Assembly: GCF_014172375.1 (NCBI RefSeq)
Contig: NZ_WNXD01000001.1
Location: 1,612,001 to 1,676,000, forward strand
Direction of reading: 5' to 3'
Source: Pedobacter planticolens
GTDB lineage: Bacteria; Bacteroidota; Bacteroidia; Sphingobacteriales; Sphingobacteriaceae
DNA length: 64,000 nt
A program made the position numbers and the translations under genes. This document shows, piece after piece, positions 23,495-38,600 of the stretch. The notes under the pieces are model-generated. The model searched no databases, had not been told where the DNA came from, and worked only from the letters and a program-made list of their open reading frames with translations. The first letter of the stretch is position 1. Each line of letters opens with the position of its first letter.

Positions 23495-26131
23495 TTAATT
23501 TCCTATCCTTCGTTTTTCTTCGTCGTTACTTTGTTCGATTTTCTTATTATTGAATTTTTTACCGGAACTAAATGTGTAATTTAATGATAAGTTGATGGTT
23601 CTTGTTTGTCTCTTTTGGTAAAAATCTATGCTAGTTCCTAAATATTCGGTATAGCTCTTTTCTCTAGCGGTGTTAAAGATGTCGGCAAAATAGGTACGAA
23701 TTTGTAGCTTTTTATTTAATAAACGCTTTGTAAGTCCAGCATCGATATTAAATTGATCCGAGGATTTTGTGTTTGCATTTACAGAGGGCGAACGGTAATA
23801 ACCATATACATCTAAGTCTATAATATTTTTAATCATTACGGTATGCTGAAGTGAAGCAAATAAAGTAGATTGTGAAATCTGATAGTTATCTAAATTATAT
23901 CTCAAATTATATCCCGCTAAGGACGTATTCATTATCCACCACTTAAAAAATTTAATTGGTGCATATATGGAGAACCCGTATTCTTTACTACTGCTAAAAT
24001 TGCGATTTTGGTATTCAATTACATTGCCAGCACCTGGCTGCGCTAATTGTGCAACCCGATCTGTAGTAATTGAATAATACAAATCTGCAGCAATCTCTTT
24101 CCAAAAATAACTTCCTACTTCAAATTTATGTGTGTATTCTGGGGTAAGATCTGGGTTTCCTATTTGAGCTAGGTAATCATCAAACTGTAAACGATATGGG
24201 TTTAAATCTGCAAAAGAAGGTCGTTGCAATCTTCTTGAATAACTAAAATAAATGGCGCTTCCTTTTGCTTCATCCAATTTTTGGTTTACAAATACTGAAG
24301 GGAAAAGCCCGAGGTAGTTTCGTGTAAACTGCTTATTCAATGTAATTGAATTTCCGTTCATGTGCGTATGTTCTGCTCTTAGGCCTGCTTTGATGCTTAG
24401 TTTTTTCCAACTCTTTTCAATTGAAGCATATGCCATAGAAAGGTCTTCCTTATAGATGAACTGATTACTTAGATTGGTATTCAGCACCCAATTTCCCCCG
24501 CTATAATTTTCGTTGATCACTTGATTATCTCGTGTTGTTGATGCAAACTTTAAGCCCGCTTTAATAGAAATTTGTTGCTTTAACATTTTTGTATAATCGG
24601 TTTGAAGGCTATACACATTAGTAGTATTTGGGGTATTATTGCGGTAGGTAGAATTTTTTGAAGGTACATCGTACATCGAAGAAAAGTTATTTACTTCCTT
24701 TCTTTTACTGTAAATATAATCGCCTATTACTTTAAAGCTCGAACCTAAGCTGTCCAGTTTCCATACATAATTTATCGTGGTTCCACTAAGAATAGGTCTT
24801 CTGAACCATTCGGATCTTGCAGTACCTGAAAGTGGTTGAGCACCTATAAACTTATTGTAGGTATTGAAATATTGGTTTAATCGGGTACCTGTTTGCACGG
24901 TTTGAATGCCGAGCGATTGATTTTTGCCCAAGTCGTAACCTATGCTAAATTGATATTTAGCAGCGTTATTATTATTATAACGATCTGTATTACTCGAATA
25001 AAAATCCTGATTGGGATAGGTAACTCGGTTACTGGCAATGGATTCGCTCTTTTCATTCCCAGCTGATACACTACCAAAGAGATACAAGTTTTTCACTTTA
25101 TAGTTAAGCGATAACCCTGCACCATATCCAAAACGGTTTTCAATTTTACGGTATTGAGTATTCACACTTCCCACTAATCCGTCTCTTCTCGATTTTTTAA
25201 GTATGATATGGATGATGCCTCCAGAACCTGAGGCTTCAAACTCTGATGGTGGACTAGAAATGATCTCAATTTTACTGATATCTTCTGATCTTAACGTACG
25301 CAGGTAATCTGCGAGGTCATTTCCCGACATGCGTTGAACTACATCATTAATCATTACCATTACCGATTGATTTCCTCTTATTTTAATATTACCATTGTTG
25401 TCTACCCAAATTCCTGGCGATCGTTGTAATACTTCAAGTCCATTGCTCCCATTTGCCAAAAAGCTTCCTTCCACATTTACAATATAACGATCTGTTTTTC
25501 TTTCCATCAAAGGCTTGGTTCCTGTTACGTTTACCGTTTTTAGCGCTAACTGATCATCACCCAAAACAATTTGCTTTGCAGTAAGTGTATCAGGATAGGT
25601 AAAATCAATTTCTTTTGATTTAAAACCAACTGATGTAATTTTTAAACGATAGGTATAGTTTGGTAAAAAGTTAAATGCCAATTGATAATCTCCAGTTTCA
25701 TTACTAATGCTGCCTCCTAAAAGTACCTTCTCATCAAATAATCCTATAGAGGCGAATGGAATGCCTTTTCCTTTTATATCTACTATTTTACCATTTAATG
25801 TTGTTTTATAAATCGACTTTTCTTTCCCCAATTGTTTTCTACTCCCAATTGCAATTAACCTGCTGGTAATCATTTGATGATAGAGCCGTTGTTCGGGCAA
25901 TACTTTTGTTAACACTTCAGCAACTGGCATATTAGTTACATTTAATGATACTCTCATGGTATCTGAAACCACATCATCACTGTAAATGAAACTATATTTG
26001 CTCTGTTCTTCAATCTGCTTAAATAACAAACCAATAAACTGTTTATTGAGATTAAGGGTTACCACTCTATCTTGTGCGCAAAGTAGAACAGGTAAACTAA
26101 GCACAATGAGTACTATCATTATTTTTCTCAT
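23495..26131 (-). CDS. TonB-dependent outer-membrane receptor with STN signalling domain
   Basis: An 878-aa outer-membrane protein. A signal peptide (about 1-19) precedes an STN (secretin/TonB short N-terminal) domain at about 22-100. A carboxypeptidase-regulatory-like beta-sandwich follows at about 107-195, a plug domain at about 205-305, and a long beta-barrel of the outer-membrane beta-barrel-3 type to the end. The STN domain indicates that substrate binding is signalled to the FecR anti-sigma factor encoded immediately upstream (3-bp gap). It is not a SusC protein and no SusD partner is present. The substrate is unknown, but a glycan fragment or metal chelate is likely. Confidence 0.92.
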   Translation of the reverse strand: MRKIMIVLIVLSLPVLLCAQDRVVTLNLNKQFIGLLFKQIEEQSKYSFIYSDDVVSDTMRVSLNVTNMPVAEVLTKVLPEQRLYHQMITSRLIAIGSRKQLGKEKSIYKTTLNGKIVDIKGKGIPFASIGLFDEKVLLGGSISNETGDYQLAFNFLPNYTYRLKITSVGFKSKEIDFTYPDTLTAKQIVLGDDQLALKTVNVTGTKPLMERKTDRYIVNVEGSFLANGSNGLEVLQRSPGIWVDNNGNIKIRGNQSVMVMINDVVQRMSGNDLADYLRTLRSEDISKIEIISSPPSEFEASGSGGIIHIILKKSRRDGLVGSVNTQYRKIENRFGYGAGLSLNYKVKNLYLFGSVSAGNEKSESIASNRVTYPNQDFYSSNTDRYNNNNAAKYQFSIGYDLGKNQSLGIQTVQTGTRLNQYFNTYNKFIGAQPLSGTARSEWFRRPILSGTTINYVWKLDSLGSSFKVIGDYIYSKRKEVNNFSSMYDVPSKNSTYRNNTPNTTNVYSLQTDYTKMLKQQISIKAGLKFASTTRDNQVINENYSGGNWVLNTNLSNQFIYKEDLSMAYASIEKSWKKLSIKAGLRAEHTHMNGNSITLNKQFTRNYLGLFPSVFVNQKLDEAKGSAIYFSYSRRLQRPSFADLNPYRLQFDDYLAQIGNPDLTPEYTHKFEVGSYFWKEIAADLYYSITTDRVAQLAQPGAGNVIEYQNRNFSSSKEYGFSIYAPIKFFKWWIMNTSLAGYNLRYNLDNYQISQSTLFASLQHTVMIKNIIDLDVYGYYRSPSVNANTKSSDQFNIDAGLTKRLLNKKLQIRTYFADIFNTAREKSYTEYLGTSIDFYQKRQTRTINLSLNYTFSSGKKFNNKKIEQSNDEEKRRIGN

Positions 26132-26134
26132 CCT

Positions 26135-27157
26135 TTAATCTTTAATGATTACCAGCTTATTGCTAATGGTATAAGTTAACGGATAAGAGAGTTTTAGTCC
26201 ATCTAAGGCCTGTTTAATGGTTTCAGTGGTGAATGTTCCACTAAAGCGGCGCTCTTTTAATTGTGCACTTTGGATTTCAATTTTTAGTTCATATTTCTTC
26301 TCTAAGCGGATAGCCAGATCCTTTAGTTTTTCTTTGCGGAATATCAGCGTATCAGAAGTCCATTTGGTTTCATTTAACAAGTCCAGTGTACTGATCGGTT
26401 CTATATCAAATTTTGAAGTATTACCTTGCACTAAGGCTTTGGGGATGATTAGTTTTTGGTTAGGTTTAAGTAGTATCCTATTTTCGGGATCCGATGTATG
26501 GCTAACTTGGATTAGACCTCTTATTAAAGCTACTTGAATGTACGGTTTACCACTGTAGGCATTTACATTAAATGCTGTACCCTTTACTTCTATAGTGATA
26601 TTGCCAACATGAATGAATAAAGGAATGGCGGAGTTTTTCACGACATCAAAATAAGCCTCACCCTGAAGAGAAATTTCACGTTTTTCTTTTCCAAATGAGC
26701 TGTTATAGCTCAGTTCAGAGTTTTTGTTCAACCAAATTTTCGTACCATCTGCTAGTAGTTTGAAAGATTTAGTAGTACCTGTGTTAAAGGATTGGATTTC
26801 TTGCTGACTACGTTTTTGTAAGGTATAAACGACTAACGTTGAAGCTAATGCTAAAATAAGTACTGCTGCGATTTTAAGGAAGCTGAAGATATTGAATTTG
26901 CTTTTTGGTGCAGCATAATCAAATGTTCCTTCAAAGTTCTCTTCTTCGGCTTTAGCAATCATTGTCCAAGCAGCTCTTAGCTTATCGGTTTTTGAGTTTT
27001 TAGCTTTCCGTTGGTTAAAATATTTTGTTAGCTTATCCGCCAGCTGCTTATATTCATCACTAGTATTGATAGCTAGGGTTAAAAGCTCATTTTCCTCAAC
27101 GGAAATATCATTGCTTAGCTTTTTGGATAACAAGAATAGAAACTTATCTTTTTTCAT
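26135..27157 (-). CDS. FecR-family anti-sigma factor
   Basis: A 340-aa membrane protein. It has a cytosolic N-terminal segment that should bind the sigma factor, one transmembrane helix at about residues 90-110, a periplasmic FecR domain (about 120-225, with FKLLADGTKIWLNKNSEL) and a C-terminal DUF4974 domain (about 265-340). It relays the state of the STN-type receptor encoded 3 bp downstream to the ECF sigma factor encoded upstream. Gene order sigma, anti-sigma, receptor is the classic Bacteroidota trans-envelope arrangement. Confidence 0.94.
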   Translation of the reverse strand: MKKDKFLFLLSKKLSNDISVEENELLTLAINTSDEYKQLADKLTKYFNQRKAKNSKTDKLRAAWTMIAKAEEENFEGTFDYAAPKSKFNIFSFLKIAAVLILALASTLVVYTLQKRSQQEIQSFNTGTTKSFKLLADGTKIWLNKNSELSYNSSFGKEKREISLQGEAYFDVVKNSAIPLFIHVGNITIEVKGTAFNVNAYSGKPYIQVALIRGLIQVSHTSDPENRILLKPNQKLIIPKALVQGNTSKFDIEPISTLDLLNETKWTSDTLIFRKEKLKDLAIRLEKKYELKIEIQSAQLKERRFSGTFTTETIKQALDGLKLSYPLTYTISNKLVIIKD

Positions 27158-27265
27158 TTATTTAAATTTTCTTTCTTCACCTTTTTCAATGGTGATGAAG
27201 CTGACATTTTCATTTAGCTTTATACGTTAAGGACACCTGAATTTTAGTTTATACTTATCTGCTTA

Positions 27266-27889
27266 CTAAAAAAATAAAGAAGTGATTAAAGAAAGCTTTT
27301 GTGTTTTACTAGTTTTCTTGCGTGGATCGTACCCTAAATAACCGCTAATGGCATCTGCAAGTGTAATTATAGCTTTATGTAATTGGTTTTCGACGGTTCT
27401 AATAGAGATACCTAATATTTCGGCTACCTCATGTCGTTTCATGCCTTGCTCTTTAATCAATTTAAAAATCATTCGACGTTGATCAGGTAACTTAGCTACT
27501 ATTAAATCGAGTATTCTTGAAAGTTCTTTTTCTTCGGCTAGGCTAGTTTGGTAAACAGAAACTATATCGAATGACTGCTCATCTGAAGGAACAGTAACTA
27601 GTTTGTTTTTTCTGTGATTTGACCTGAGCCAATTTAAGCAGGCATTTTTAATAGAAACAAAGAGATAAACTTCAGGATTGATGATGTTCGAAAGCATGGC
27701 ACGCTTAATCCATACCTTTACAAAAAGCTCGGATGTAATTTCTTCGGCACTTTCCAATTGTTTTACATACTGCAGCGCAAATGCCAATAATTTATCGTGG
27801 TAACGCAAAAAAAGTTCATCAAATGCATGAGTATTCCCACATTGGATTTCCTTAAATAACACGATAAGGTGATCTTTCTTCTCCGGCAT
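27266..27889 (-). CDS. ECF RNA polymerase sigma factor (FecI-like)
   Basis: A 207-aa sigma-70 family factor. Region 2 is near residues 22-90 (AFDELFLRYHDKLLAFA, EEITSELFVKVW). Region 4 is near 130-185 (MKRHEVAEILGISIRTVENQLHKA). It heads the operon with FecR and the STN receptor. It should be sequestered by FecR and released when the receptor binds its ligand, then transcribe this operon and perhaps nearby hydrolase genes. It is a normal ECF factor in size and domain content, in contrast to the atypical one at 30283-31038. Confidence 0.94.
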   Translation of the reverse strand: MPEKKDHLIVLFKEIQCGNTHAFDELFLRYHDKLLAFALQYVKQLESAEEITSELFVKVWIKRAMLSNIINPEVYLFVSIKNACLNWLRSNHRKNKLVTVPSDEQSFDIVSVYQTSLAEEKELSRILDLIVAKLPDQRRMIFKLIKEQGMKRHEVAEILGISIRTVENQLHKAIITLADAISGYLGYDPRKKTSKTQKLSLITSLFF

Positions 27890-28392
27890 TAATGAGTTTT
27901 TTTTATAGCTGATAGATTGGTTTTATTAAAAGACACAAAAAATTAGTGGTATACTCACTCAAAGGTAAAATTTATACATTCAATGAGTTAAATCGATACC
28001 AAGAAAAAATATACCCTTGAGAATCTTTACCAGCTCCGCCGAAAGATAGATAAACCACTTTCCAAATTGATATGGTATAGCTGATTGTTTTATCATCAGC
28101 TCGATTTAACGTTGTGGCTAAGGAGGATAGGATTAATCCTTAAAAATAGTTGATTAAATACCTCTGTTAAGGTCTGCTTCGGGACTTCTTCGAGTCTTCT
28201 TCGAGACTTGTTCGAGAAAAGAGGTGTTTTCTCGAACATGACCCGAACAAGACCTTAACAAGACCTAATGAAATGGGTAGTATCAAAAGCTCAATTAGGG
28301 ATTAAGCCGATGGCCTTTTGTTTTTCGTTTAAGTTAAATAATCTTTTGTAGCGTTTTGTAGAACAGATTCGTATAGGTACGAAAAGCAAAAC
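27890..28392. other. Gene-free gap upstream of lipoprotein gene with long nested inverted repeat
   Basis: A 503-bp region with no gene. At 28166-28259 it holds a nested inverted repeat. Outer arms are GTTAAGGTCT/AGACCTTAAC, middle arms TTCGGG/CCCGAA, and the apical hairpin TTCGAGAAAA/TTTTCTCGAA has a 6-nt loop. Between the left arms lie short direct repeats of CTTCGAG type. A smaller hairpin GCTGAT/ATCAGC is near 28080-28100. The structure could be a regulatory leader for the lipoprotein gene at 28393 or a mobile repeat. Confidence 0.7.
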
Positions 28393-28767
28393 ATGAAAAA
28401 CTTCTTATTCGCCAGTGTACTAATATGCACCTTACTGATTACTGCCTGTAAAAAAGATGATCAAACTACAGGTGAACTATTCGGAAAATGGGTATTGACC
28501 GAACAATATGCAGATCCTGGCGATGGCAGTGGGACATATCAAAAAGTAAAAGAACTGAAAACAGTAACCTTCCTTCCTACCGGAGAAACTACGGGCGAAG
28601 TTTTTGAGCCACTTACAAAGTTTAAGATTTTGGATAGTGTGCGCCTAGAAATCACCACCAAAAATATAAATCAGCCTCTTATTTATTACTATAAAGTTAC
28701 CGCTAAACAATTGGTACTCAATCCGCCATGTATTGAAGGCTGTGGATTAAAGTTTAGGAGAAAATAG
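28393..28767 (+). CDS. Small lipoprotein, lipocalin-like
   Basis: A 124-aa lipoprotein. The lipobox LITAC places the lipidated cysteine at residue 19, after a short hydrophobic signal. The mature part starts KKDD and contains a GKWVLTEQY block typical of small lipocalin-like proteins of Bacteroidota. It is on the plus strand and convergent with the dCas12f-like gene, with 222 bp of structured sequence between their stops. Function is unknown. It could be an unrelated neighbour. Confidence 0.78.
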   Translation: MKNFLFASVLICTLLITACKKDDQTTGELFGKWVLTEQYADPGDGSGTYQKVKELKTVTFLPTGETTGEVFEPLTKFKILDSVRLEITTKNINQPLIYYYKVTAKQLVLNPPCIEGCGLKFRRK

Positions 28768-28989
28768 TGTGAGATTGGTTGGTTATTGAAGAGTGCGAAA
28801 TACAAATTCACTTAAAAGAAAAGTTCGAGGTATTTTGTAAACATCTCGAACAGCTGGCCCTTTCGTTTTTAGAGTGTAGTTTGTTAGTGAGCTTCAGATA
28901 AAGAAATATAATTATAAGAATGTTAGGGATTGTAAATCTCTTTAATTTGAATTTCGAAATGCCTTGCAAAACATTTCGAACAGCTGGGT
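28768..28989 (-). ncRNA. Structured region 3' of the dCas12f-like gene (candidate guide-RNA segment)
   Basis: Read on the minus strand, the dCas12f-like stop is followed after about 10 nt by a CAGCTG plus hairpin element at 28953-28986. Its stem starts TTCGAAATG/CATTTCGAA and continues with wobble pairs. A second CAGCTG plus hairpin is at 28824-28856 (TTCGAG/CTCGAA, extended by A-T and G-U pairs). The two lie in direct orientation 130 bp apart and differ by changes that mostly keep pairing. Cas12f and TnpB guide RNAs are often encoded next to the protein gene, so this is one candidate location. They could equally be dispersed palindromic repeats or mRNA 3' ends. No T-run follows. Confidence 0.4.
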
Positions 28990-30063
28990 TTATTCTACAA
29001 TTACCATGATACCCACTTGTTTTGCCTTATACATAATTTTCTCCTTCACGCTAAAATAGCTCCAATTTTGCAATATAAATTCATCGTGTTTGGCAATTGC
29101 CTCTTTGTCCTGCTGGCCCACTAAAATTAAGGTAGCCGCTTTATTCTTAAGGCATAACTCAATTAAACGCTTGCTGTATAAATGTAATTTAGTGTTCACA
29201 TAGTGATGCTCCTTCTGCTCATAATGTTCAGACCCTTTCATTTTACGCTTCCGTCCGTGGCCACCATGATTGTAAGTGATCCCTCTTTGCAATCTTTGTC
29301 TTGCCGCCTGTATTGCCAAACGCCGATGTAAAAACTCTTCTTTATTACCAATTTGGTACTGCTGTTGTCCAATATTTACCGTAATCGGATAGTTAAGCGA
29401 AAGCGAAGCTTCGGCAATTATGCTATTGTCTAGCTCTTGTGGTAATTCTCCCACTTCAAAATTGGCCAGTAAATAGATCTTGCCCTTATCCAGCACAATG
29501 CTACTAGAACGTAATTTAGCTGGGTAATGAAAAACCCTCGACAGTAATGTTCTTTTTTGATTGTCCTTACCTAAATAAGTACGAAATGGAATCTTAAATA
29601 AGCTAAAGGTATATTCTTTTCCGTCAGGTTTAAAGTCTTTAATACTCCGCCCCTTAAATGGCAAGGGCTGCTTTCGCTGGTGGCTCCTGAGCGATTTCTC
29701 TCCGTTTCGGTAATCCTTAATCTCTTTCGCAAAGGCGGATGATAAGCTGTAATTTAAGCAGCATAGAATGTCGTTCGGAATTTCCCCTTTAAATAGCTTC
29801 GACAACAACCTGCCCGTTGCATTCAATTTGGAGGTGTTCAATACACCCTCTTCATCTTTGGCTTGATTACTTAATTTCAAATGAAATTCTTCCGTAAAAT
29901 AGAAGAAGTCTTTTAACTGTTCCTGCACATAAAGGTGACTCGTAACCATGTTCAATGCCCTAAAAACAATATACCGCCATCTATACAAGGTTTTATGATG
30001 CAACTCAATCACTTCAGCATCTTTACTGTGAATAAACAACTGTATTTTCCTGGTAAGTACCAT
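28990..30063 (-). CDS. dcas12f: Nuclease-dead, C-terminally truncated Cas12f/TnpB-like protein (dCas12f)
   Basis: A 357-aa protein starting at the ATG at 30063. A TTG at 30195 would add 44 residues not matching the family. The N-terminus MVLTRKIQLFI...WRYIVFRALN resembles the wedge/REC start of Cas12f and TnpB proteins. The second half carries the GGHGRKRKMKG block (residues 267-277), a KLHLYSKRLIELCLKN helix, and a terminal NWSYF...IMYKAKQVGI block (from residue 333), all typical of the RuvC part. The RuvC-I aspartate position reads LSLN (Asn224). The RuvC-II glutamate position reads LILVGQ (Gly316). The protein ends right after the GIMVIV strand, so the zinc-finger and RuvC-III aspartate are absent. 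It therefore should bind DNA by guide RNA without cutting. It lies downstream of the sigma gene on the same strand. Confidence 0.85.
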   Translation of the reverse strand: MVLTRKIQLFIHSKDAEVIELHHKTLYRWRYIVFRALNMVTSHLYVQEQLKDFFYFTEEFHLKLSNQAKDEEGVLNTSKLNATGRLLSKLFKGEIPNDILCCLNYSLSSAFAKEIKDYRNGEKSLRSHQRKQPLPFKGRSIKDFKPDGKEYTFSLFKIPFRTYLGKDNQKRTLLSRVFHYPAKLRSSSIVLDKGKIYLLANFEVGELPQELDNSIIAEASLSLNYPITVNIGQQQYQIGNKEEFLHRRLAIQAARQRLQRGITYNHGGHGRKRKMKGSEHYEQKEHHYVNTKLHLYSKRLIELCLKNKAATLILVGQQDKEAIAKHDEFILQNWSYFSVKEKIMYKAKQVGIMVIVE

Positions 30064-30282
30064 TTGTTTAAGATTTTTGTAATCAAGATTAAAAATTAAA
30101 TCCTCAGCATAAGCAACAAATACTAAACTGGATTTTTGTTGTATGATCTGATAATCGAGTTTATTCAAACACCAACCAAATCTTAGTGCGTACAAACAAT
30201 GGTCGCACCCTACGGCTATACAAGTAGCCTCAAATTTTTATCTACCCTTTTCATTTAGCAAAAAAGGCATTATCAATCTTAT
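30064..30282 (-). ncRNA. Leader between the sigma and dCas12f-like genes with two hairpins (candidate guide-RNA segment)
   Basis: This 219-nt spacer separates the sigma stop from the dCas12f ATG, long for a Bacteroidota operon. In minus-strand order it holds a hairpin GGCTA/TAGCC (30214-30229), five nucleotides, and a hairpin GTGCG/CGCAC (30186-30208). An A/T-rich tail follows to the start codon. An open frame crosses it from a TTG but its translation is unlike the protein family. It could be a 5' untranslated regulator or part of a guide RNA. Confidence 0.35.
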
Positions 30283-31038
30283 TTATTTACACACCTGATA
30301 AGCCTTTACATAGGCTAGCTTTACCTGCGTTTCTGCCATGTTAAGTTCACGGGCAATTTCTTCAAAGCTATATTGAAGCTCATAACGCATCCTCATTACG
30401 TTCTTTTGCAAATCATCTAATGCTCCATTAAAGGTTAAACCACTCTTTTGTGTAGCCTGTTGCAACTTCTGTTCGTTCGTTAATATCTGCTTCATTTTTT
30501 TTAAAAGATCTTCAACTTGCTTTGCCACTACATAATCAGATATGCCGCCTAAATAATAAGCAATCCGATCATAATTGAAATCGTATTTGAGACAAAGCCT
30601 AATCATCTGTTGCTGCGCTTCTGATAAATTAGGAATCAGTTGTTTAACCCGCAACCATTGCTCCTGGTATTTGACCAATAAGTGATCATACGTCTCAAGG
30701 GGCTTATCCTCTTCCCCTATCTCTGGGTCTGCTATCAGTAAAAAATCAGGATGAGCTAAATCGTCTAAGCAAAAAAGATTAAAATGAAACCTGTTTTTTG
30801 CAACACTATAATAATTGTAAATCGCTTTATTTAATTGCTGCTTCAAAAACGTATAAATATCAGCCGCTTGTAGCTGATCACGTAAATGCCAAACATTTAA
30901 AAAGGCATCATGCACCATTCCGCTAGCCACTACATCATCTTTCACCGCTTTTGTACAACGCCAAGCGAACATAGCATAATATCGACTATAGAATTGATTG
31001 AAAACATACATTTGCTGATTTGAGGGCGTCTCTTCCAT
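30283..31038 (-). CDS. Atypical ECF-like sigma factor linked to dCas12f
   Basis: A 251-aa sigma-70 family protein, longer than usual ECF factors. Residues 12-85 match sigma region 2 (FNQFYSRYYAMFAWRC, GMVHDAFLNVW). Residues about 133-183 form one helix-turn-helix resembling region 4 (LSEAQQQMIRLCLKYDFNYDRIAYYLG). Residues 205-250 form a second (LQKNVMRMRYELQYSFEEIARELN, then QVKLAYVKA). The tandem region-4-like pair is unusual. No anti-sigma gene is adjacent, unlike the normal ECF operon at 26-28 kb. Its partner downstream is the dead Cas12f-like protein, so it probably joins RNA polymerase to an RNA-guided DNA-binding protein. Promoter recognition residues cannot be judged. Confidence 0.85.
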   Translation of the reverse strand: MEETPSNQQMYVFNQFYSRYYAMFAWRCTKAVKDDVVASGMVHDAFLNVWHLRDQLQAADIYTFLKQQLNKAIYNYYSVAKNRFHFNLFCLDDLAHPDFLLIADPEIGEEDKPLETYDHLLVKYQEQWLRVKQLIPNLSEAQQQMIRLCLKYDFNYDRIAYYLGGISDYVVAKQVEDLLKKMKQILTNEQKLQQATQKSGLTFNGALDDLQKNVMRMRYELQYSFEEIARELNMAETQVKLAYVKAYQVCK

Positions 31039-31079
31039 ATTTAGGTATTTATTGATGGTTTATTAAAATTATTAGTCCA

Positions 31080-31545
31080 ATGAGGCATTCCTGCTCCACC
31101 TCCCATATAGTCACTGTCCCCCCTTCCGCGACATTGCGAACCCAATCCTTTGCCGAAATTTTGGGATGGTAATTTCCTTCCATTCCGCGTCATTCCGCAC
31201 TTGATGCGGAATCGTAATGCTTTGGGTTTTCTTTGCCTCATGACCGGCAGGTCTATTGTCTTTTTTCTCTTTGTTTTTGTTTCGTGTTTCTCCCTGCAAC
31301 CCCTCAAAAATCCACACCCCTATCCATTTACCACTGCCCAAAAGAGCGCTGGCCTGAAAGAACGGCGGGCCATGCGTTTGCCTCGAGCGGAGAAGCATCG
31401 TTCTTTCTTGACTTTTTGGGTTCTTTTTCGTCAAGAAAAAAGAACCTTGCCCCCGCGGCAAAGAGCGGATCAACCGCTTGCTTCTATCACCCCCCAACCC
31501 TTTTACCAAAGCCAAAAATCACTGACCTAAAAGAACACCCTTGAC
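31080..31545. repeat. Dispersed intergenic repeats upstream of the sigma gene
   Basis: This stretch carries a CGTCATTCCGC...GCGGAATCGTAATGC hairpin at 31188-31220, the same family as at 22222 and 50818. From about 31345 to 31465 it carries an inverse copy of the repeat found at 23297-23462, with GGCGGGCCATGCG and an A/T stem TTCTTTTTCGTCAAG...AAGAAC. Overlapping frames on both strands are translations of these repeats and not genes. Confidence 0.7.
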
Positions 31546-31559
31546 CAAAATCACATAAC

Positions 31560-31644
31560 AAAAAAAGCGGGAACGCTCCTCTTAAAACTTAAAAGGAAGA
31601 ATTAACCTATTAACCATAACAACCTCCATTCTTTGTTCCCGCTT
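31560..31644 (-). terminator. Large terminator-like hairpin enclosing an 11-codon frame with a Shine-Dalgarno
   Basis: On the minus strand perfect 10-bp arms AAGCGGGAAC (31644-31635) and GTTCCCGCTT (31574-31565) enclose about 60 nt and are followed by a T-run to 31560. This is like an intrinsic terminator. An inner stem AAGAAT/ATTCTT is nested. In the loop, GGAGG (31627-31623) stands five nucleotides before an ATG at 31617 that opens MVNRLILPFKF and stops at 31582. A strong Shine-Dalgarno is rare in Bacteroidota. It may end a non-coding RNA transcribed from 31.6-32.0 kb, before the sigma gene, or act as an attenuator. Confidence 0.5.
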
Positions 31645-31803
31645 ATATCTTCTACACCGGGTTCTTCGGCTTTAAAGCAAACAAACGATCAAAAGGAAAA
31701 ATACAATAGAGATGATTGGGATTTGAAAAAACATAAGCTGTTGCATTCGCTTTTGGAGAAAGCGACAGTAGATTACATACAGATTTACTTATTTTTTTCA
31801 TTG

Positions 31804-32020
31804 CTCGTATGGATTATACGAGTCTTGATTGGGGTAGCTACAATACATGTGGGACTACCAACCATAACTACATTAAAGTTCTCAGGCCTTACGTTGAAAA
31901 GGATTTACAGCAGCCCCACATCTATTTCGATGCACAAATATATACATCTACACATAGATATGGGCATTAATTCTGCTGTCTTGCTTCAACGGCCTGAGAT
32001 TTTTGTAGTTGCAAGACTCG
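31804..32020. ncRNA. Nested, strongly structured segment upstream of the sigma-dCas12f pair (candidate guide RNA)
   Basis: Six pairs of arms are nested in order: CGAGTCTTG/CAAGACTCG (31819-31827 with 32012-32020), CTACA/TGTAG, CTCAGGCC/GGCCTGAG (31881-31888 with 31991-31998), GTTGAA/TTCAAC, ACAGCAG/CTGCTGT (31907-31913 with 31973-31979), and an 11-bp apical stem with one mismatch (31915-31925 with 31954-31964). The left side has extra hairpins CTCGTAT/ATACGAG (31804-31822) and GGTAG/CTACC (31833-31859). The latter's loop ATGTGGG can pair with CCCACAT at 31915-31921, giving a possible pseudoknot. Such nested stems with a pseudoknot resemble Cas12f guide scaffolds. Strand is not determined: the minus strand is co-directional with the sigma gene. 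A plus-strand frame across it looks non-coding. Confidence 0.5.
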
Positions 32021-32059
32021 GATTAATACCTAATTATAAAACGAATATAAAAATAAAAG

Positions 32060-32074
32060 TTTAGATATTCTAAA
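32060..32074 (+). promoter_or_regulatory. Palindromic operator upstream of the HTH gene
   Basis: The palindrome TTTAGATATTCTAAA has 6-bp arms and lies 60 bp before the start of the small HTH gene. A second short inverted repeat, CAAGT/ACTTG (32114-32132), abuts the start codon. Such sites commonly bind the HTH protein encoded next to them, giving autoregulation. They also lie between that gene and the structured segment on the left. Confidence 0.45.
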
Positions 32075-32134
32075 GTATTCTTTAAATAATCAAATGAAAA
32101 ATAGAAAAATTATCAAGTAAACATTTCACTTGGT

Positions 32135-32437
32135 ATGTTTATCAAAACGATAAGAGTGAAAAAGAAGTCGGAGCTTACAGAACTTGGTAAATACTTAATT
32201 TTGAAATCTGCTAACAAAGCAGAAATTTACAGGAAGACGAGTATTACTGAATCTCGTCTAAGTCTGCTAAGTAACGACCCAAAAACTAAACTTTCTGGAG
32301 AAGAATTATACTTGATAGCTCTTGCACTGGACGTTGACCCTGGCGATATGGCTAAGACAATTTATACGGGAGTTAAGCTAAACACTATTGCAGAACAAGA
32401 AGCTTTAGCTGCTAAGAGCAGAAAAAACAAGCTATAA
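32135..32437 (+). CDS. Small XRE-like helix-turn-helix protein
   Basis: A 100-aa protein. Residues about 14-65 form a Cro/C1-type helix-turn-helix (AEIYRKTSITESRLSLLSN then SGEELYLIALALDVDPGDM). The C-terminus is lysine-rich. It is convergent with the AIPR gene (57 bp between stops), and its upstream side faces the structured RNA segment. It could regulate the defence genes, the sigma-dCas12f pair, or itself. It has no toxin-like neighbour on the same strand. Confidence 0.82.
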   Translation: MFIKTIRVKKKSELTELGKYLILKSANKAEIYRKTSITESRLSLLSNDPKTKLSGEELYLIALALDVDPGDMAKTIYTGVKLNTIAEQEALAAKSRKNKL

Positions 32438-32494
32438 ACAATAACTCCAATTGATTTTAGGCTTGACTAAGGTGGTTGCTGTTATGAAACAATA

Positions 32495-34609
32495 TTAAGT
32501 CTTATTTTTAAAGTTCTTTAAAGTGTTACCATCTGAATCTTTCCAAGTGATACGGCCATTAGATGAATACCCGTTAATTACATTGGCAGCTAAAGACGAG
32601 CTAGAAAACACATAATCTTTTATAAAAGTGTATTTTCCGTTCCCTAAAGTAACTATATTTTTTTCTACCAAAACTCCTCTAAGTCTGGTTTGACTGCCAG
32701 TAAGAGATTGAGAACTCTCTATACTCATATCGCTTTTTGCAAGGACTTTGAACCCATTAATGGTTGGAATACCAAATGCTGTCAAGCCTTTAATTTTATT
32801 CTCTAATTTATATTGATTAAAGAAATTTGTTTCGACAGAATCCACATTTTCCAAATCAACCTCTTGATTTAGAGTTTTAAAAATAGTTATAGGCAAAGGC
32901 GATTTATAAAAAGTATTAAATGCGAAGCTTCTATTCTCTGTTTTAGCTCTTGCTTTTCCTACCTTATTAACTTTTTCAATAACTTCGATTGCTTTAGGAT
33001 AAAGCCCTAGTAGCAGGTCTAAATTTTTATATTCAATATCGATATTGTTTTGCTTTGCAATTTCCTTTATGAAGTAAAGAATATATAAGCTAGCATAAAT
33101 TATATATGATTTTTCTTCGTAAATAACCTCATTTATAAAGAGTTCTGGTCTCTTTTCGTTTTTATTAGCCTCTATAAATTCAAATAATTTATATGCTAGT
33201 AAAACCTTATCCGTATCAATATCTTCTGTAAACACGTTATCATACTCCTCCGCAAATATTGACGCTTTTGAATTTTTAGCTTCGTATGGACTGTTGTTGT
33301 AAAAACTCATTAACACCTGACCAACTTTTTCAGAATCTAACCTAACGTTCTTGGCTTCGTCAGCATATTGATTTTTCTTTCTTTCATAAAAGTATCCCCG
33401 AAGTTTAAATTCTTGCTCTAATTTTAACTGAACATAATCAATTGATTTTATATCACGGTTATTTACGGGGTTTTGACTATTTGTAAACTGAGCAATTTTT
33501 CCACTTAATTCTTTGTTTTTAATCTCATATATCCTACATAAAACACTTGCATTCTCAAGTTTGTTATAGTCTTCTTTAAGTGCGTCGTATAAAGCATGAA
33601 TGGTTTGACTTCCATTAACTACCTGAATATCTTTCAGCTCAATTAATGGAAATTGAGGGTTTAAATTATACATGAATTCATTACATGTAATTGTGATTCC
33701 GTTATTGTAATAGAAAAATTTTGAGCTATCATCCGATAGCACGGTTCTCTTGATATTTTGGTTAATTCGTGGTCTCTGCTTTAAATAAACCCTGACATTA
33801 TCATCAAATGCATCTTCACAAATTTCGCTATTAGTCAATTTCGAGATGTCATCTAAATTAGTTTCTAGCCTTAAATCCTCCCTGTTTAATACAATTCTGA
33901 TACAATCAACCACACTAAGATTGACAATTAATGCCCTCGTATCTCCCCCTGATTGTTCAAATAATTCCTTTTTACTTACTTGAATTTTTGCGTCAACGAT
34001 TTTTCGATGCTTACCCGTCAATTTAAGAACTATATCTTGAGCCAAAAAATTCCTAAGCTCTATGTTGCTATAGGCATCTAATTGCTTTTGAAATCTATGC
34101 TGCTCATTCTTTTCTAATGGGAGTGAACCATTTGACACCAAGTGAATAACAAACGCGGGATGCTTTACGTTAAAAAGTTCCCAAATCTCTTTAACCTTCT
34201 CGTACAAGAACTGGTTAATTGACGCTTTAAAAACATCATCTTCTATACCTTCAAATAAATGGCTGAGAAAGCTTAAAATCTTATCAATTTCACTACTTGG
34301 AAAGTTAGAGAGAGTTTTTTCGAAGGTTCCAGAATATTTAAAATTGAATAGATGAATAATTGGATCTTTACCAGTTTCTTCAATATAAATAGCATCAATT
34401 CCTCTATCATTACCTTTCGGCCCGTTATTTTGTGATAGATAATGGGTATCTGTTATACAATTCTGAATTTCGTCTAATTGAAGATTAAATAGATTACCAA
34501 GAACCAAAAAATAAAATGCTTCATTTGAAGCAGATGCATTTATATCTTCTTTAATCTTTTCAACAGATGTTTTAATTAGTGAATAATCTTGCCTAGTATA
34601 TTTTCTCAT
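32495..34609 (-). CDS. AIPR-family phage-resistance protein
   Basis: A 704-aa protein of the abortive-infection phage resistance (AIPR) family. The hallmark FFYYNNGITITC block is near residue 298, and VVNGSQT near residue 330, followed by a long helical C-terminus. The N-terminal part contains a GNDRGIDAIYIEE...HLFNFKY stretch near residue 68 that may be a degenerate restriction-endonuclease fold. These proteins are associated with phage defence and often sit beside restriction-modification genes, as here. The gene is last in a same-strand group after a membrane-anchored unknown and a methyltransferase-nuclease. The mechanism is not established from sequence. Confidence 0.88.
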   Translation of the reverse strand: MRKYTRQDYSLIKTSVEKIKEDINASASNEAFYFLVLGNLFNLQLDEIQNCITDTHYLSQNNGPKGNDRGIDAIYIEETGKDPIIHLFNFKYSGTFEKTLSNFPSSEIDKILSFLSHLFEGIEDDVFKASINQFLYEKVKEIWELFNVKHPAFVIHLVSNGSLPLEKNEQHRFQKQLDAYSNIELRNFLAQDIVLKLTGKHRKIVDAKIQVSKKELFEQSGGDTRALIVNLSVVDCIRIVLNREDLRLETNLDDISKLTNSEICEDAFDDNVRVYLKQRPRINQNIKRTVLSDDSSKFFYYNNGITITCNEFMYNLNPQFPLIELKDIQVVNGSQTIHALYDALKEDYNKLENASVLCRIYEIKNKELSGKIAQFTNSQNPVNNRDIKSIDYVQLKLEQEFKLRGYFYERKKNQYADEAKNVRLDSEKVGQVLMSFYNNSPYEAKNSKASIFAEEYDNVFTEDIDTDKVLLAYKLFEFIEANKNEKRPELFINEVIYEEKSYIIYASLYILYFIKEIAKQNNIDIEYKNLDLLLGLYPKAIEVIEKVNKVGKARAKTENRSFAFNTFYKSPLPITIFKTLNQEVDLENVDSVETNFFNQYKLENKIKGLTAFGIPTINGFKVLAKSDMSIESSQSLTGSQTRLRGVLVEKNIVTLGNGKYTFIKDYVFSSSSLAANVINGYSSNGRITWKDSDGNTLKNFKNKT

Positions 34610-34714
34610 TATTTGTTCTTAAAATCCAATTTCGTTTTTCTTGTTTCCAATGCCATATAATATTTCTCTCAACAATCATATACATTCACACATACCTAAT
34701 AATGACCAGATGTT

Positions 34715-35659
34715 TTATCTCATATGCATAATATCCATCGGTTTGTAGTGTTCGCAATAAACATTGATGCCAAATTTTATAATCAATGCACTTACCATCA
34801 CTATAACAGTTCTAATACCTATATTTAATTTATGAAATGCATCTGCAACAATAGTTGTGATTAGGCTAGTTATGCCCGCTAAGCCACCTGTGTACCAACC
34901 TTTATAAACTTCACTATCTTTATCGCAAATCGACTTATAAATAGTTCTCTTAATAGATTTAAATAAGGTCTTACCTATTTTTTTGTCTTCCAACATTTCT
35001 TTCCCGGATGGCAGTGCTATCCTCTCTGCTGTAGGCAATTGCTTTTTTGAAAACTCGTCGACCTTTAACAGGACATGTTTTGCACTATTTGGCACTACAT
35101 TACCAATATTCTCAAAATATTTATCTTCTAATTGATTAGACTGGATGAACTTACTTACTTCATGTTCAATTTCGTTAGAGTCAAATCTCTGCACAGGAAC
35201 AGATCCTTTAAGTGCAAATAGCAAACCCTCTTCGTCAAAACGTTCAATCATATTTTTTCTAAAAATTGCTCGTTTTGTTACTGAAGAGATAACTTTATCG
35301 TTTATTAAAACCTCTCTAATCAACGGTTCAGCTTTAAGAAGATCCTTCATTCTTAAATAGCATATAGCTAACAAAGCAGTAGCTTCTAGGAAAGTCCGTG
35401 TATGTTTATTTATAATAGTGCGTATACCTATAAGTCCACTAATAGCTATATTTACTTCGCCTTGTTCCATATTAGCTTCAAAGAGCCTAGTTTTAGCCTG
35501 CATTAATCTGGCTGTATTACCAGTAGAATTAAAAATGGGCTGCAAGTCTAAAATTATTATTTTAGCAGAATTGACATCCCCTTTTGAGGCGGCAATTTCA
35601 AGTTGGTTTTCAAGCCTCTCAACTCTTTCTTTTTGAATAGGAGTAAATTTTTGTATCAT
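34715..35659 (-). CDS. Unknown protein with helical repeats and C-terminal membrane anchor
   Basis: A 314-aa protein I do not recognise. The first 130 residues are helical with alternating basic and acidic stretches and resemble tetratricopeptide-type repeats (EVNIAISGLIGIRTIINKHTRTF region). Two hydrophobic segments near residues 257-275 and 281-302 anchor the C-terminus. It begins 16 bp after the restriction-methylation gene and is followed 105 bp later by AIPR, so it is probably part of the same defence operon. A sensor or scaffold role is speculation. Confidence 0.78.
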   Translation of the reverse strand: MIQKFTPIQKERVERLENQLEIAASKGDVNSAKIIILDLQPIFNSTGNTARLMQAKTRLFEANMEQGEVNIAISGLIGIRTIINKHTRTFLEATALLAICYLRMKDLLKAEPLIREVLINDKVISSVTKRAIFRKNMIERFDEEGLLFALKGSVPVQRFDSNEIEHEVSKFIQSNQLEDKYFENIGNVVPNSAKHVLLKVDEFSKKQLPTAERIALPSGKEMLEDKKIGKTLFKSIKRTIYKSICDKDSEVYKGWYTGGLAGITSLITTIVADAFHKLNIGIRTVIVMVSALIIKFGINVYCEHYKPMDIMHMR

Positions 35660-35675
35660 ATTATAATTAAATTCT

Positions 35676-38600
35676 TTAAACCTCCATCACCTGATCAATC
35701 TCCATAATCAATTCACTTGTCTTAGTAAGCGCTACAATAATCTTTTGGTAGTGTAAAATATCATCAAACTCTAAAACTCTACCTTTGCGGTCTTTTAGCC
35801 ATTTTTGGGCGGGTTGGTAACCACCTATGTAAAAGTTCCAAGCTATTTCGGGTACGTTGTTGAAGCATTGGGTTTCGTTGATGTAGACTTTGCCGAACAC
35901 CCCGCCTTTCAGGCACCCCTCTGAAAGAGGGGAATTTGGTTCGTGGTTGGTTTTTCCTTCGACAAGCTCAGGATGACAAACACTTTCTGGATGACAAACA
36001 TAGTGGGGTTTTATGACTTCATTACTGCCATCTATTGGATATTGAGTAATGTATTTTTCGGTGTCTTCGCTTTCTAATAGATGTAGTTTTCTTAGCTGAC
36101 TACCCAAATTAGCTAGAGGCATAAAATTTTTAAATGTTGGATACGGAACTCGAGGAAAATCTATTTTTAAAAACTCTTTGTATTTATCTCTATAAGCTGG
36201 ACTGTGTAAAACCGCATAGATGTAGTCTAAAATATTTATAGGATAGAATTGCATGGTTTCAACCATACAATCATCATTTGGCTCTTCTGGAGCAAAGTAA
36301 TAACCTGCACTTTCTGCAATTTTGTTAACGATTTCCATATTGAGGTTTGGAACTCTTTCTATTTTACCATCTAAAGTTGTTTGGTTGGTTTGTTCTGGAT
36401 AAATGTATAATGGAAAGTTACTAGTTATTTCACTCGTCTTATTTGATACATAAGAACTTTCTGTGATTGTATTTGAGATAAAGACGTGATGATAGTTATT
36501 TCCTGCTTTGAACTGTTTGCAACAACATAATCCGACGTTGTCACCAAGTATATAATTTTTCATTACATGATTTACAGGCCAACCAATAAATCCTTTTGAT
36601 TTTCCTGTATAGTATGTCCATTTTTTATCAAATAATCGATAATCACATTTGATAAAAAAATTTTCAGAAGTGCCAAATTCCATTACGTTTTCTTTTACGA
36701 ACTCTGCCTTTCCATCTCTGCTTTCCCATCCAACTTTATCATATTTTTGCTTAATCTCGGATATGGATAAATGAAATATATTATTAATGACATCTTTTAT
36801 TTCATCTACATTCTCTTTAAATGCTAAAGAATCTCTCTTACTAACAATCCCTGTTCCATTAACTGGATATAAATCATCTATCTTGAACCCTATTTCATAA
36901 TCTGATTGCATTCCAAAATCGGTTTGTGTCAATATGTAACTTGGTGGGTTGGGTACTAGCCTTTTGAAAAGGATAGCATTCAAATTGTTTTCACTTAGAA
37001 AATTATACTTGAAGTCTCTCTTTCCAAATAGATCAAAATGAAATACCTCTCCTAATTCAGTAGCAGTTTTTTTCCCAGTCTTTATAAATAGATTAATGCT
37101 AACACCTTGCATTATATCAAATACATTTTGATCTAAAGAACCATCAAGTGCGGTCTCTTTCTTTTTGCTATTTCCATGCAAGTCTATCGTATAAATCTTA
37201 TCATACGTTTTTAATAAGTTCCAGCGCATCCCACGAAATGTGGGGTTATCTAAAAAGCCATGTGGGTTAATGAAAGCTAAAATTCCTGTCCCATTCTTTT
37301 CTATAAAATGTTGTCCGAAGCGAATAAATTTTACATAATCATCATTTATCCACTTAGGGTTACGTTCCTTTAATTTCTCTTTTCCTCCTGGTTCTTTTTT
37401 ATAATCTTCCATTAGATTCATAATCCATTCACTTTTATTGGCACTTTCGCCACTATAAGGAGGATTACCCATAACTACCATAACTGGCGCATCTCGTTTT
37501 ATGGCATTGGCTTGGTCGGCTTCATCACTTAACCAAGAGCTAAATAAGGTTCCAGTATCTGGGTGTGCTTCTTCTAAGCTGTTGGTTAAGAAAATACGGA
37601 AACGTTGGTCTGTAGTGGCTTTATAACCAGTTTCGGTTAAAAGCATATCCATTTTAAGATGCGCCATTGCATAACTTGCCATTAGCAATTCGAAACCATT
37701 TAAACGAGGTATTAAATGTTGGTTTACATAATTGCTCCAAATGCCTTGTTGCCCTTCAAACTTTTTATGGATGTGTTTTACTACTTCTGCCAAAAAGGTG
37801 CCTGTACCAGTCGCAGGATCTAAGATTTGAACTTTGTGTACTTCATGTTCTGTTTCTACCTCTTTGAGTTTAGAACGTTGGTCGGCAGTTGCTTTGGTAA
37901 CGTGTTTAGTTTTTACTTTTATTTTGCTGGTGTCTGCTAAACCTTGTGGCAGGTTAAATTCTGTTTTCAGGATATCGTCTACCGCACGAACAATAAAGTT
38001 AACTACGGGTTGTGGCGTATACCAAACTCCCCTAGCCTTGCGCAAGGCAGGGTTATACGTTGCCAAAAAGGTTTCGTAAAAGTGTACCACTGGGTCTTCT
38101 TGTTTGGTGCTTTTACCAAAGTTCTTCATGATATCGGCAACATCGGTAGCTAAAAAGATGTTTACGAGTTCATCTACCATCCACACTAGACGATCATCTA
38201 AATCGTAACCTGCAATGTCTTGAAATAACTTGCGTAAGAAAGGATTTGATTTTGGGATTAAAGTTGCGGCTTCTTGTCGGCTAAAGGTTGGTAAGGTTGG
38301 ATCGTGGTAACGAGCAGCAAACATACCGTAAGCTATGGTTTGGGCATAAATATCTGCAAAGGCAGAGTTATTGATATCATGTATCAGCATTTGCTTAAAG
38401 GAAAGCATTTGCTGTTTTAGGCTTGTTTTGGTTTCTGTTTCATCATCGTGATTGAGGGTTTTCTCTATCACGTCTGCCATCAGCTTTGCTTTACCCGCCA
38501 TCATTTCTGCCAGCTTTGTTGGGCTTTTAATGGTTTGGGAAATGGTTTCGGCAAAGTTTTTAATTAGGTTTTGGAAGGTATCGAAGTTTTCGGGCAAGGG

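What the first reader, a model, noticed from the sequence alone, without database searches (positions are those of the whole stretch)
28768..32134. A dCas12f-sigma locus: likely RNA-guided transcription system
A dead, truncated Cas12f/TnpB-like protein (28990-30063) lies 219 bp downstream of an unusual ECF-like sigma factor (30283-31038) on the same strand, with structured non-coding DNA on all sides. I recall a report that nuclease-dead Cas12f and sigmaE homologues from Bacteroidota act together to recruit RNA polymerase at guide-RNA-chosen sites. This pair has that architecture. Seen: the domains, the lost RuvC residues, gene order. Known from family: Cas12f/TnpB use guide RNAs. Inferred: that this pair activates transcription.
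Basis: partly seen in the sequence, partly recalled or inferred. Interest (0 to 1): 0.95.

Follow-up and report, generated by a model that had tools for sequence, protein, structure and literature searches.

The report
RNA-guided sigma switch for nutrient uptake
This Pedobacter locus encodes a nuclease-dead Cas12f-like protein, its predicted partner sigma factor and, between them, a predicted guide-RNA gene whose 15-letter guide matches (14 of 15) a site just upstream of a nutrient-uptake operon elsewhere in the same genome, where the complex likely switches transcription on.

Summary
The protein at 28990-30063(-) is a dead, truncated Cas12f: its best solved relative is "Nuclease-deactivated Cas12f" (PDB 9n9c and others, E 4e-98). 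The sigma factor at 30283-31038(-) matches "RpoE" in 9n9q (E 4e-29), an entry that holds both chains. The pair is linked in 77 of 80 related loci.

A scaffold supported by covariation lies in the 219-bp gap (30138-30231, -), followed by the guide AAAAATCCAGTTTAG (30123-30137, -). It is the only such RNA found in this genome. The guide matches 14 of 15 bases (the mismatch is wobble-compatible) at the end of a leader ORF (...LKPKNPV*) upstream of a redoxin-SusC-SusD operon. In P. chinensis it matches 15 of 15 upstream of SusC-SusD. In P. paludis no such target was found.

Many such leaders end just before a terminator-like hairpin; the same arrangement precedes this sigma gene. Flavobacteriaceae guides also hit a SusC leader, on the strand shared by a terminator and an antiterminator.

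This is a new member of the known dCas12f-sigma kind. The bold reading is RNA-guided initiation past an attenuator. Transcription itself is inferred, not tested.

The parts
28990..30063 (-). dcas12f: nuclease-dead, truncated Cas12f-like protein, 357 aa
   Evidence: phmmer vs PDB 9n9c 'Nuclease-deactivated Cas12f' E 4.4e-98 over 354 aa; PADLOC Cas12u3/Cas12f 1.5e-47; 96 of 399 family genomes have a match at E <= 0.001
30123..30137 (-). guide AAAAATCCAGTTTAG (3' end of the guide RNA; length inferred from conservation in three species)
   Evidence: follows the scaffold end CAAC in window, L032 and L087, 15 nt conserved as AAAAAYCCWGTTTAG and then diverging
30138..30231 (-). guide-RNA scaffold, three stems
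   Evidence: covariance model R1 69.3 bits, E 1.8e-16 (model contains this sequence); alignment A2 93.1% of cells paired, 9 of 15 pairs changed on both sides, 0 of 500 shuffles; no Rfam match in 27900-32500
30283..31038 (-). partner ECF-like sigma factor, 251 aa
   Evidence: phmmer vs PDB 9n9q_C 'RpoE' E 4.3e-29; Pfam Sigma70_r4_2 5.8e-09; TIGR02937 2.1e-14
31565..31574 (-). 3' arm of terminator-like hairpin (GTTCCCGCTT, then T-run) upstream of sigma
31635..31644 (-). 5' arm of the same hairpin (AAGCGGGAAC), 7 nt after the leader stop codon
   Evidence: same arms at the SusC target C1:875248 (L175)
31652..31666 (-). guide-like site AAGAACCCGGTGTAG (11 of 15 identical to the guide) ahead of the sigma gene
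31652..31675 (-). end of leader ORF ...PFDRLFALKPKNPV* upstream of sigma (start codon not determined)

Best explanation
This locus encodes a nuclease-dead Cas12f, its predicted partner sigma factor and, between the two genes, a single predicted guide RNA whose 15-nt guide matches (14 of 15) the end of a leader ORF upstream of a redoxin-SusC-SusD operon in the same genome, where the complex is predicted to bring RNA polymerase and likely starts transcription of that operon. Shown here: the proteins and their homology, the RNA scaffold with covariation, the guide, the target-like site and its position upstream of SusC/SusD in two species. Inferred: that the RNA is made and bound, that the complex opens the target DNA, and that the sigma factor recruits polymerase. 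The guide has the same sense as the leader transcript, so it can pair with the template DNA strand but not with the mRNA. Because the leader stop codon is followed within 7-9 nt by a terminator-like hairpin at both sites of this genome, a transcript begun some tens of bases downstream of the site (about 46 bp in the published relative, recalled and not checked) would lack the leader and the hairpin's 5' arm. The same leader and hairpin stand before the sigma gene, so weak self-regulation is possible (4 mismatches).
For: Protein homology to solved 9n9c/9n9q, which hold nuclease-deactivated Cas12f and RpoE. Sigma next upstream in 77 of 80 loci. Guide scaffold in 77 of 80 loci with covariation. 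One scaffold found in each of this genome, P. paludis and P. chinensis (150 of about 2100-2300 first-look candidates scored per genome). Guide pattern AAAAAYCCWGTTTAG with no mismatch: outside the guide-RNA genes there is one hit in each of the three genomes; two of the three lie upstream of a SusC operon. KPKNPV* pattern, up to 1 mismatch: 2 sites in this genome, 1 in P. chinensis, 0 in reversed controls. Operon contents by Pfam: redoxin, SusC-type receptor, SusD; and SusC-type receptor, SusD, redoxin in P. chinensis. Terminator-like hairpin after the leader stop in 18 of 29 leaders against 32 of 1000 random segments and 6 of 290 shuffles. Guides of Flavobacteriaceae hit a covarying SusC leader.
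Against: No RNA, binding or transcription data. The own-genome match is 14 of 15, not exact. In P. paludis the guide's only exact genomic match outside its own gene is antisense inside a gene whose protein resembles an M60-type peptidase (by eye), and no SusC-linked leader was found. The sigma leaders of P. chinensis and P. paludis failed the hairpin-plus-T test that the window's leader passed. The base before the site is C and T at the two SusC targets of this clade but G at the Flavobacteriaceae and P. foliorum sites, so a common flanking motif (TAM) is not established. The leader pattern is common in Pedobacter without dCas12f: 41 of 105 genus genomes have a hit and 21 have dCas12f, with 10 in both, about what chance gives (counted by hand). 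The site upstream of sigma has 4 mismatches to the guide. Of five genomes searched for another Pedobacter guide, only P. foliorum gave leader sites.
Confidence: 0.8

Rival explanations
1. The dead Cas12f acts as an RNA-guided roadblock (TldR-like): it binds the leader and blocks polymerase coming from an upstream promoter, and the sigma factor has a separate job.
For: The target lies inside a leader that must be transcribed from upstream for its peptide to be made, and the leader shows coding constraint.
Against: Tight linkage with a dedicated sigma factor in 77 of 80 loci and a solved entry with both proteins.
Confidence: 0.1
2. The guide resembles the leader only because the 3' part of the guide-RNA gene was copied from a leader; the real target is elsewhere or has been lost, and the locus is a decaying relic.
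For: No leader target in P. paludis; 14 of 15 match only in this genome; leader spread is independent of dCas12f.
Against: The similarity starts exactly at the scaffold end and covers the guide alone. The dcas12f and sigma frames are intact in the three species, and the guide stays conserved for 15 nt while flanking bases diverge.
Confidence: 0.12
3. A TnpB-family remnant of an IS605 element that lies by chance beside a sigma gene, without a functional partnership.
For: Databases name some such proteins transposase, and NCBIfam TnpB matches below cut-off.
Against: Linkage in 77 of 80 loci, length of 348-382 aa among the listed relatives, shared guide-RNA family.
Confidence: 0.02

Closest known systems
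dCas12f-sigmaE RNA-guided transcription system of Bacteroidota (PDB 9n9c, 9n9m, 9n9o, 9n9q; literature recalled, not found in the library)
   Same: Homologous dead Cas12f (E 4e-98) and RpoE-like sigma (E 4e-29), gene order of the related loci, guide RNA with 3' guide, target-like site upstream of SusC-type genes
   Different: Guide-RNA gene lies between sigma and dcas12f (this window and 2 of the 80 loci); longer third stem; C-G in place of A-U in stem 2; one guide only; target is the stop-codon end of a leader ORF
Cas12f nucleases (type V-F; PDB 9nzr, 8hr5, 7l48)
   Same: Detectable homology over residues 122-398 of the 401-aa frame, and guide-RNA binding by inference
   Different: RuvC residues lost, C-terminus missing, no CRISPR array found at the locus
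TldR, nuclease-dead TnpB repressors (recalled)
   Same: RNA-guided DNA binding by a dead TnpB/Cas12 relative
   Different: TldR represses and has no dedicated sigma partner (recalled)
Leader-peptide attenuators such as tnaC (recalled)
   Same: Short leader ORF whose stop codon lies next to a terminator-like hairpin
   Different: Here an RNA-guided complex is predicted to act on the leader DNA; arrest by the KPKNPV peptide is untested

Membership tests
dCas12f-sigmaE system | Cas12f-like protein homologous to the nuclease-deactivated Cas12f of the known system | tested here: met
   E 4.4e-98 over 354 aa to 9n9c_A
dCas12f-sigmaE system | Loss of RuvC catalytic residues | tested here: met
   First Asp aligned with Ser220, Glu-bearing stretch deleted, C-terminal part absent in the alignment to 9nzr; column 220 is Ser or Thr in 21 sequences
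dCas12f-sigmaE system | Adjacent homologous sigma factor | tested here: met
   9n9q_C RpoE E 4.3e-29; linked in 77 of 80 loci
dCas12f-sigmaE system | Guide RNA of the same family with a 3' guide | tested here: met
   Scaffold model R1, in window and in 77 of 80 loci; identity with the RNA in the solved structures was not compared
dCas12f-sigmaE system | Guide matches a site upstream of the regulated gene | tested here: met
   14 of 15 in this genome, 15 of 15 in P. chinensis, both upstream of SusC/SusD; not found in P. paludis
dCas12f-sigmaE system | RNA-guided recruitment of RNA polymerase and initiation downstream of the site | not testable with these tools
   needs biochemistry
Type V-F CRISPR-Cas12f | Active RuvC nuclease | tested here: not met
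   residues lost
Type V-F CRISPR-Cas12f | CRISPR array at the locus | tested here: not met
   No direct-repeat family of 18 nt or more with over 2 copies in 28000-33000; one scaffold found in the genome
TldR | Represses its target | not testable with these tools
   no expression data

The most novel reading that the evidence does not exclude
dCas12f-sigma systems are RNA-guided attenuator bypasses. Their guides aim at the 5' strand of transcription attenuators in SusC/SusD leaders, so that transcription restarts inside the leader, past the arm that would form the terminator. In this Pedobacter clade the guide covers the last codons and stop of a conserved leader peptide ahead of the terminator. 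In Flavobacteriaceae it covers the strand shared by terminator and antiterminator. The sigma gene here carries the same leader and would be coupled to the same signal.
Probability: 0.35. Interest if true: 0.82.

Novelty: new member of a known kind. Interest (0 to 1): 0.62.

Why it matters
It gives an RNA-guided transcription system in Pedobacter a guide, a candidate target and a candidate operon, so activation can be tested directly. If guides regularly aim at attenuators, that would explain what these systems are for: overriding the leader control of nutrient-uptake operons. It would also give a natural rule for choosing target sites.

Tried and rejected
Guides against their own loci with up to 10-kb flanks: of 35 guides, 4 hit and 1 reversed control did; the 4 hits were other guide genes or repeats beside them. 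So targets were not found next to the system.

A 20-nt guide with up to 3 mismatches in the own genome gave only the gene itself and three 3-mismatch hits, against 5 for the reversed control. The guide was therefore taken as 15 nt, where conservation among three species stops. This length is an inference.

The idea that KPKNPV* sites mark dCas12f genomes was rejected: among the 105 genus genomes, 41 have a pattern hit (at least two of these, G227 and G242, are not leaders), 21 have dCas12f, 10 have both, where about 8 are expected by chance. These counts were made by hand from the two tables.

The 55-aa P. chinensis leader as a protein query gave 3 weak relatives, so it is not a recognised large protein family. 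Rfam gave nothing for the window region or for the 12 loci tried (one sub-threshold sRNA match in L154, outside the leader set).

PF07282 is absent from the own genome. This agrees with the missing C-terminal part and does not argue against the Cas12f relation.

Literature: searches found no paper on dCas12f-sigma in the held library. I saw only search listings and one irrelevant passage of PMC12857756. Statements about the published system, including the ~46 bp distance, are recalled.

Selections: A2 uses 32 of the 53 scaffolds extracted; those with long third domains or unclear ends were left out by hand. The position classes rest on one copy per locus (two for L065 and L102), typed from the 160 hits. 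One search used 26 of the 30 fetched leader loci (L154, L155, L158 and L160 dropped because the motif was not in a leader) plus 3 sigma leaders. One search also dropped L156 and P. paludis, so 25 plus 2. A3 uses 13 of the 14 sites extracted; L202 (Chitinophaga) was left out. Of the 26 hits, 9 are guide-RNA genes, 13 are the SusC-leader type, 2 lie inside coding genes, and 2 (L195, L202) are other hairpin sites.
Full report
Genes. The two genes are as described. The 357-aa protein aligns over 354 residues with 'Nuclease-deactivated Cas12f' of PDB 9n9c (E 4.4e-98) and, much more weakly, with Cas12f nucleases such as 9nzr. In the latter alignment the first RuvC Asp aligns with Ser220, the Glu-bearing stretch is deleted and the C-terminal part is missing; column 220 is Ser in 20 and Thr in 1 of 21 aligned sequences. 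The sigma factor aligns from residue 14 to 251 with 'RpoE' of 9n9q (E 4.3e-29); 9n9q is also listed as an entry of the dead Cas12f. Matches to the Cas12f-like protein occur in 96 of 399 genomes of the family and 27 of 145 of the genus. In the 80 named loci kept from one scan (160 were found), a sigma homologue ends within 700 bp upstream in 77; L091, L098 and L101 lack one.

Guide RNA. Comparing flanks revealed a shared element. An alignment of 32 copies supports a three-stem scaffold: 93.1% of cells pair, 9 of 15 pairs have changes on both sides, and 0 of 500 shuffles reach either value; slid controls pair 32-49%. The covariance model finds one copy in the window, 30138-30231(-), E 1.8e-16 (it is among the training rows), 160 hits in the 80 loci, at least one in 77 of 80 loci (L072, L073 and L091 have none), and one in each of the window's genome, P. 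paludis and P. chinensis (where 150 first-look candidates were scored per genome). In the window, L032 and L087 the guide-RNA gene lies between sigma and dcas12f. In the other 75 loci the copy classed lies downstream of dcas12f, upstream of sigma (L065 has both), or upstream of dcas12f where no sigma was detected.

Guide and target. The scaffold ends in CAAC. The next 15 nt are AAAAATCCAGTTTAG here, AAAAACCCAGTTTAG in P. paludis and AAAAATCCTGTTTAG in P. chinensis, after which the sequences diverge. In a search of the three genomes with AAAAAYCCWGTTTAG and up to one mismatch (34 hits), six hits have no mismatch: the three guide genes, C1:875248 in this genome, C5:25833 in P. chinensis, and one antisense hit inside a gene in P. 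paludis that resembles an M60-type peptidase by eye. The first two genomic sites are the ends of short ORFs ...LFALKPKNPV*, in the same sense, 176 and 411 bp upstream of a redoxin gene and a SusC gene. Pfam confirms redoxin, SusC-type receptor and SusD, and SusC-type receptor, SusD, redoxin. A one-mismatch hit in P. chinensis (L133) also ends a leader-like frame...LIALRPKNSV*, but no SusC-type ORF follows within the 1.5 kb fetched. The own-genome match is 14 of 15; the differing base would form a U-G wobble. A codon-degenerate search for KPKNPV* (up to one mismatch) gave 2 sites in this genome, 1 in P. chinensis, none in P. paludis and none in reversed controls. The second own site is window 31652-31672(-), about 614 bp upstream of the sigma start codon. 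A wider pattern (14 hits, 5 of them leaders) found the sigma-leader forms KPKSPV* in P. chinensis and KPRNPE* in P. paludis. So the target is identified in two of three species, and the P. paludis target is unknown.

What the leader is. The LKPKNPV* pattern, up to one mismatch, gives 58 sites in 45 of 399 family genomes, 41 of them in the genus, against 5 hits of the reversed control. In the 30 loci fetched, 26 sites end a short ORF (typically ...PF[DN]xLYALKPKNPV*), in most cases upstream of TlpA-like or SusC-type genes; 4 do not (by eye). Outside the search pattern, mean entropy by codon position is 0.73, 0.31 and 1.22 bits, the mark of a translated peptide (27 leaders). In 18 of 29 leaders a strong hairpin followed by T's starts within 60 nt of the stop, against 32 of 1000 random segments and 6 of 290 shuffles; the sigma leaders of P. 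chinensis and P. paludis are among the 11 that fail. Both own sites have the arms AAGCGGGAAC / GTTCCCGCTT; their folds have z-scores -2.07 and -3.22. This is the layout of an attenuator. That it works as one is inferred.

Other clades. In nine genomes carrying the guide GCGTGGGCTCTCTTATT or a near relative of it (eight Flavobacteriaceae by record title and recalled placement, and one Chitinophaga), 26 hits with up to 2 mismatches were found: 9 are guide genes, 13 lie in one conserved leader, 2 in coding genes and 2 in other hairpins. Nine of the 13 have an ORF with a SusC-type N-terminus (judged by eye) 506-624 nt downstream; in the other four the stretch fetched showed none. The leader shows covariation for a long hairpin including GCTCACG/CGTGGGC (95.1% paired, 8 of 25 pairs changed on both sides, 0 of 500 shuffles for these two counts, 21 of 500 for pair types; one of its helices pairs in only 78.5% of cells) and for a terminator GGGCGTGGGCTC/GAGTTCCACGCCC plus T-rich run (98.7%, 4 of 12 pairs, 0 of 500; 153 of 500 for pair types). 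These two share a strand and exclude each other, and the guide covers that strand. In P. foliorum a guide matched two sites with 3 of 19 mismatches, each in the 5' arm of a hairpin seen by eye; one lies 302 nt before a SusC-type ORF and one has none nearby. The other 12 of the 14 hits of that search, over five genomes, were guide genes (7) or coding genes (5), so the other four genomes gave no leader site.

Reading. The guide is identical in sense to the leader RNA, so it can address the template DNA strand and not the mRNA. With the solved homologue containing both proteins, RNA-guided recruitment of polymerase is the best explanation. A start some tens of bases downstream (about 46 bp is recalled for the known system) would fall beyond the hairpin's 5' arm at all three kinds of site, which suggests attenuator bypass. 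This is a hypothesis.

Limits. No expression or binding data exist here. Guide length and flanking motif are uncertain: the base before the site is C and T at the two SusC targets of this clade and G in the other clades, and in this clade it sits in a conserved Pro codon. The published papers on the system were not found in the library, so whether attenuator targeting has been described could not be checked.

Noticed in passing
G handles; loci L157-L183: A conserved Pedobacter leader peptide ending LYALKPKNPV*, often followed by a terminator-like hairpin, stands before many TlpA-SusC operons, mostly in genomes without dCas12f; it may be an undescribed attenuator.
   Followed up: partly
L188, L192, L194, L196, L198-L201, L203, L204, L206, L208, L209 near the guide match: A covarying Flavobacteriaceae SusC leader with alternative terminator and antiterminator hairpins; the five of these loci tested have no Rfam match.
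   Followed up: partly
window 28842-28856 and 28972-28986: Two copies of CAGCTGTTCGARATG, each starting a short hairpin by eye, downstream of dcas12f; role unknown (terminators or repeats).
   Followed up: partly
window 23495-27889: A TonB/CarboxypepD-type receptor, a FecR-like protein and an ordinary FecI-like ECF sigma gene lie beside the dCas12f locus (named by eye from the sequences).
   Followed up: no
window 32495-39011: Defence genes beside the locus: an AIPR/AbiU-like protein with DUF4357 and a type IIG restriction enzyme-methyltransferase.
   Followed up: partly
L202 (G407:C1:1651498), genome of L104: In Chitinophaga alhagiae a guide-like site in a hairpin lies about 118 bp upstream of the system's own sigma gene (by eye), a parallel to the leader before sigma in this window.
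   Followed up: no
L098 and L101: Two Sphingobacterium loci have dCas12f and a guide RNA, but no sigma gene was detected beside them.
   Followed up: partly
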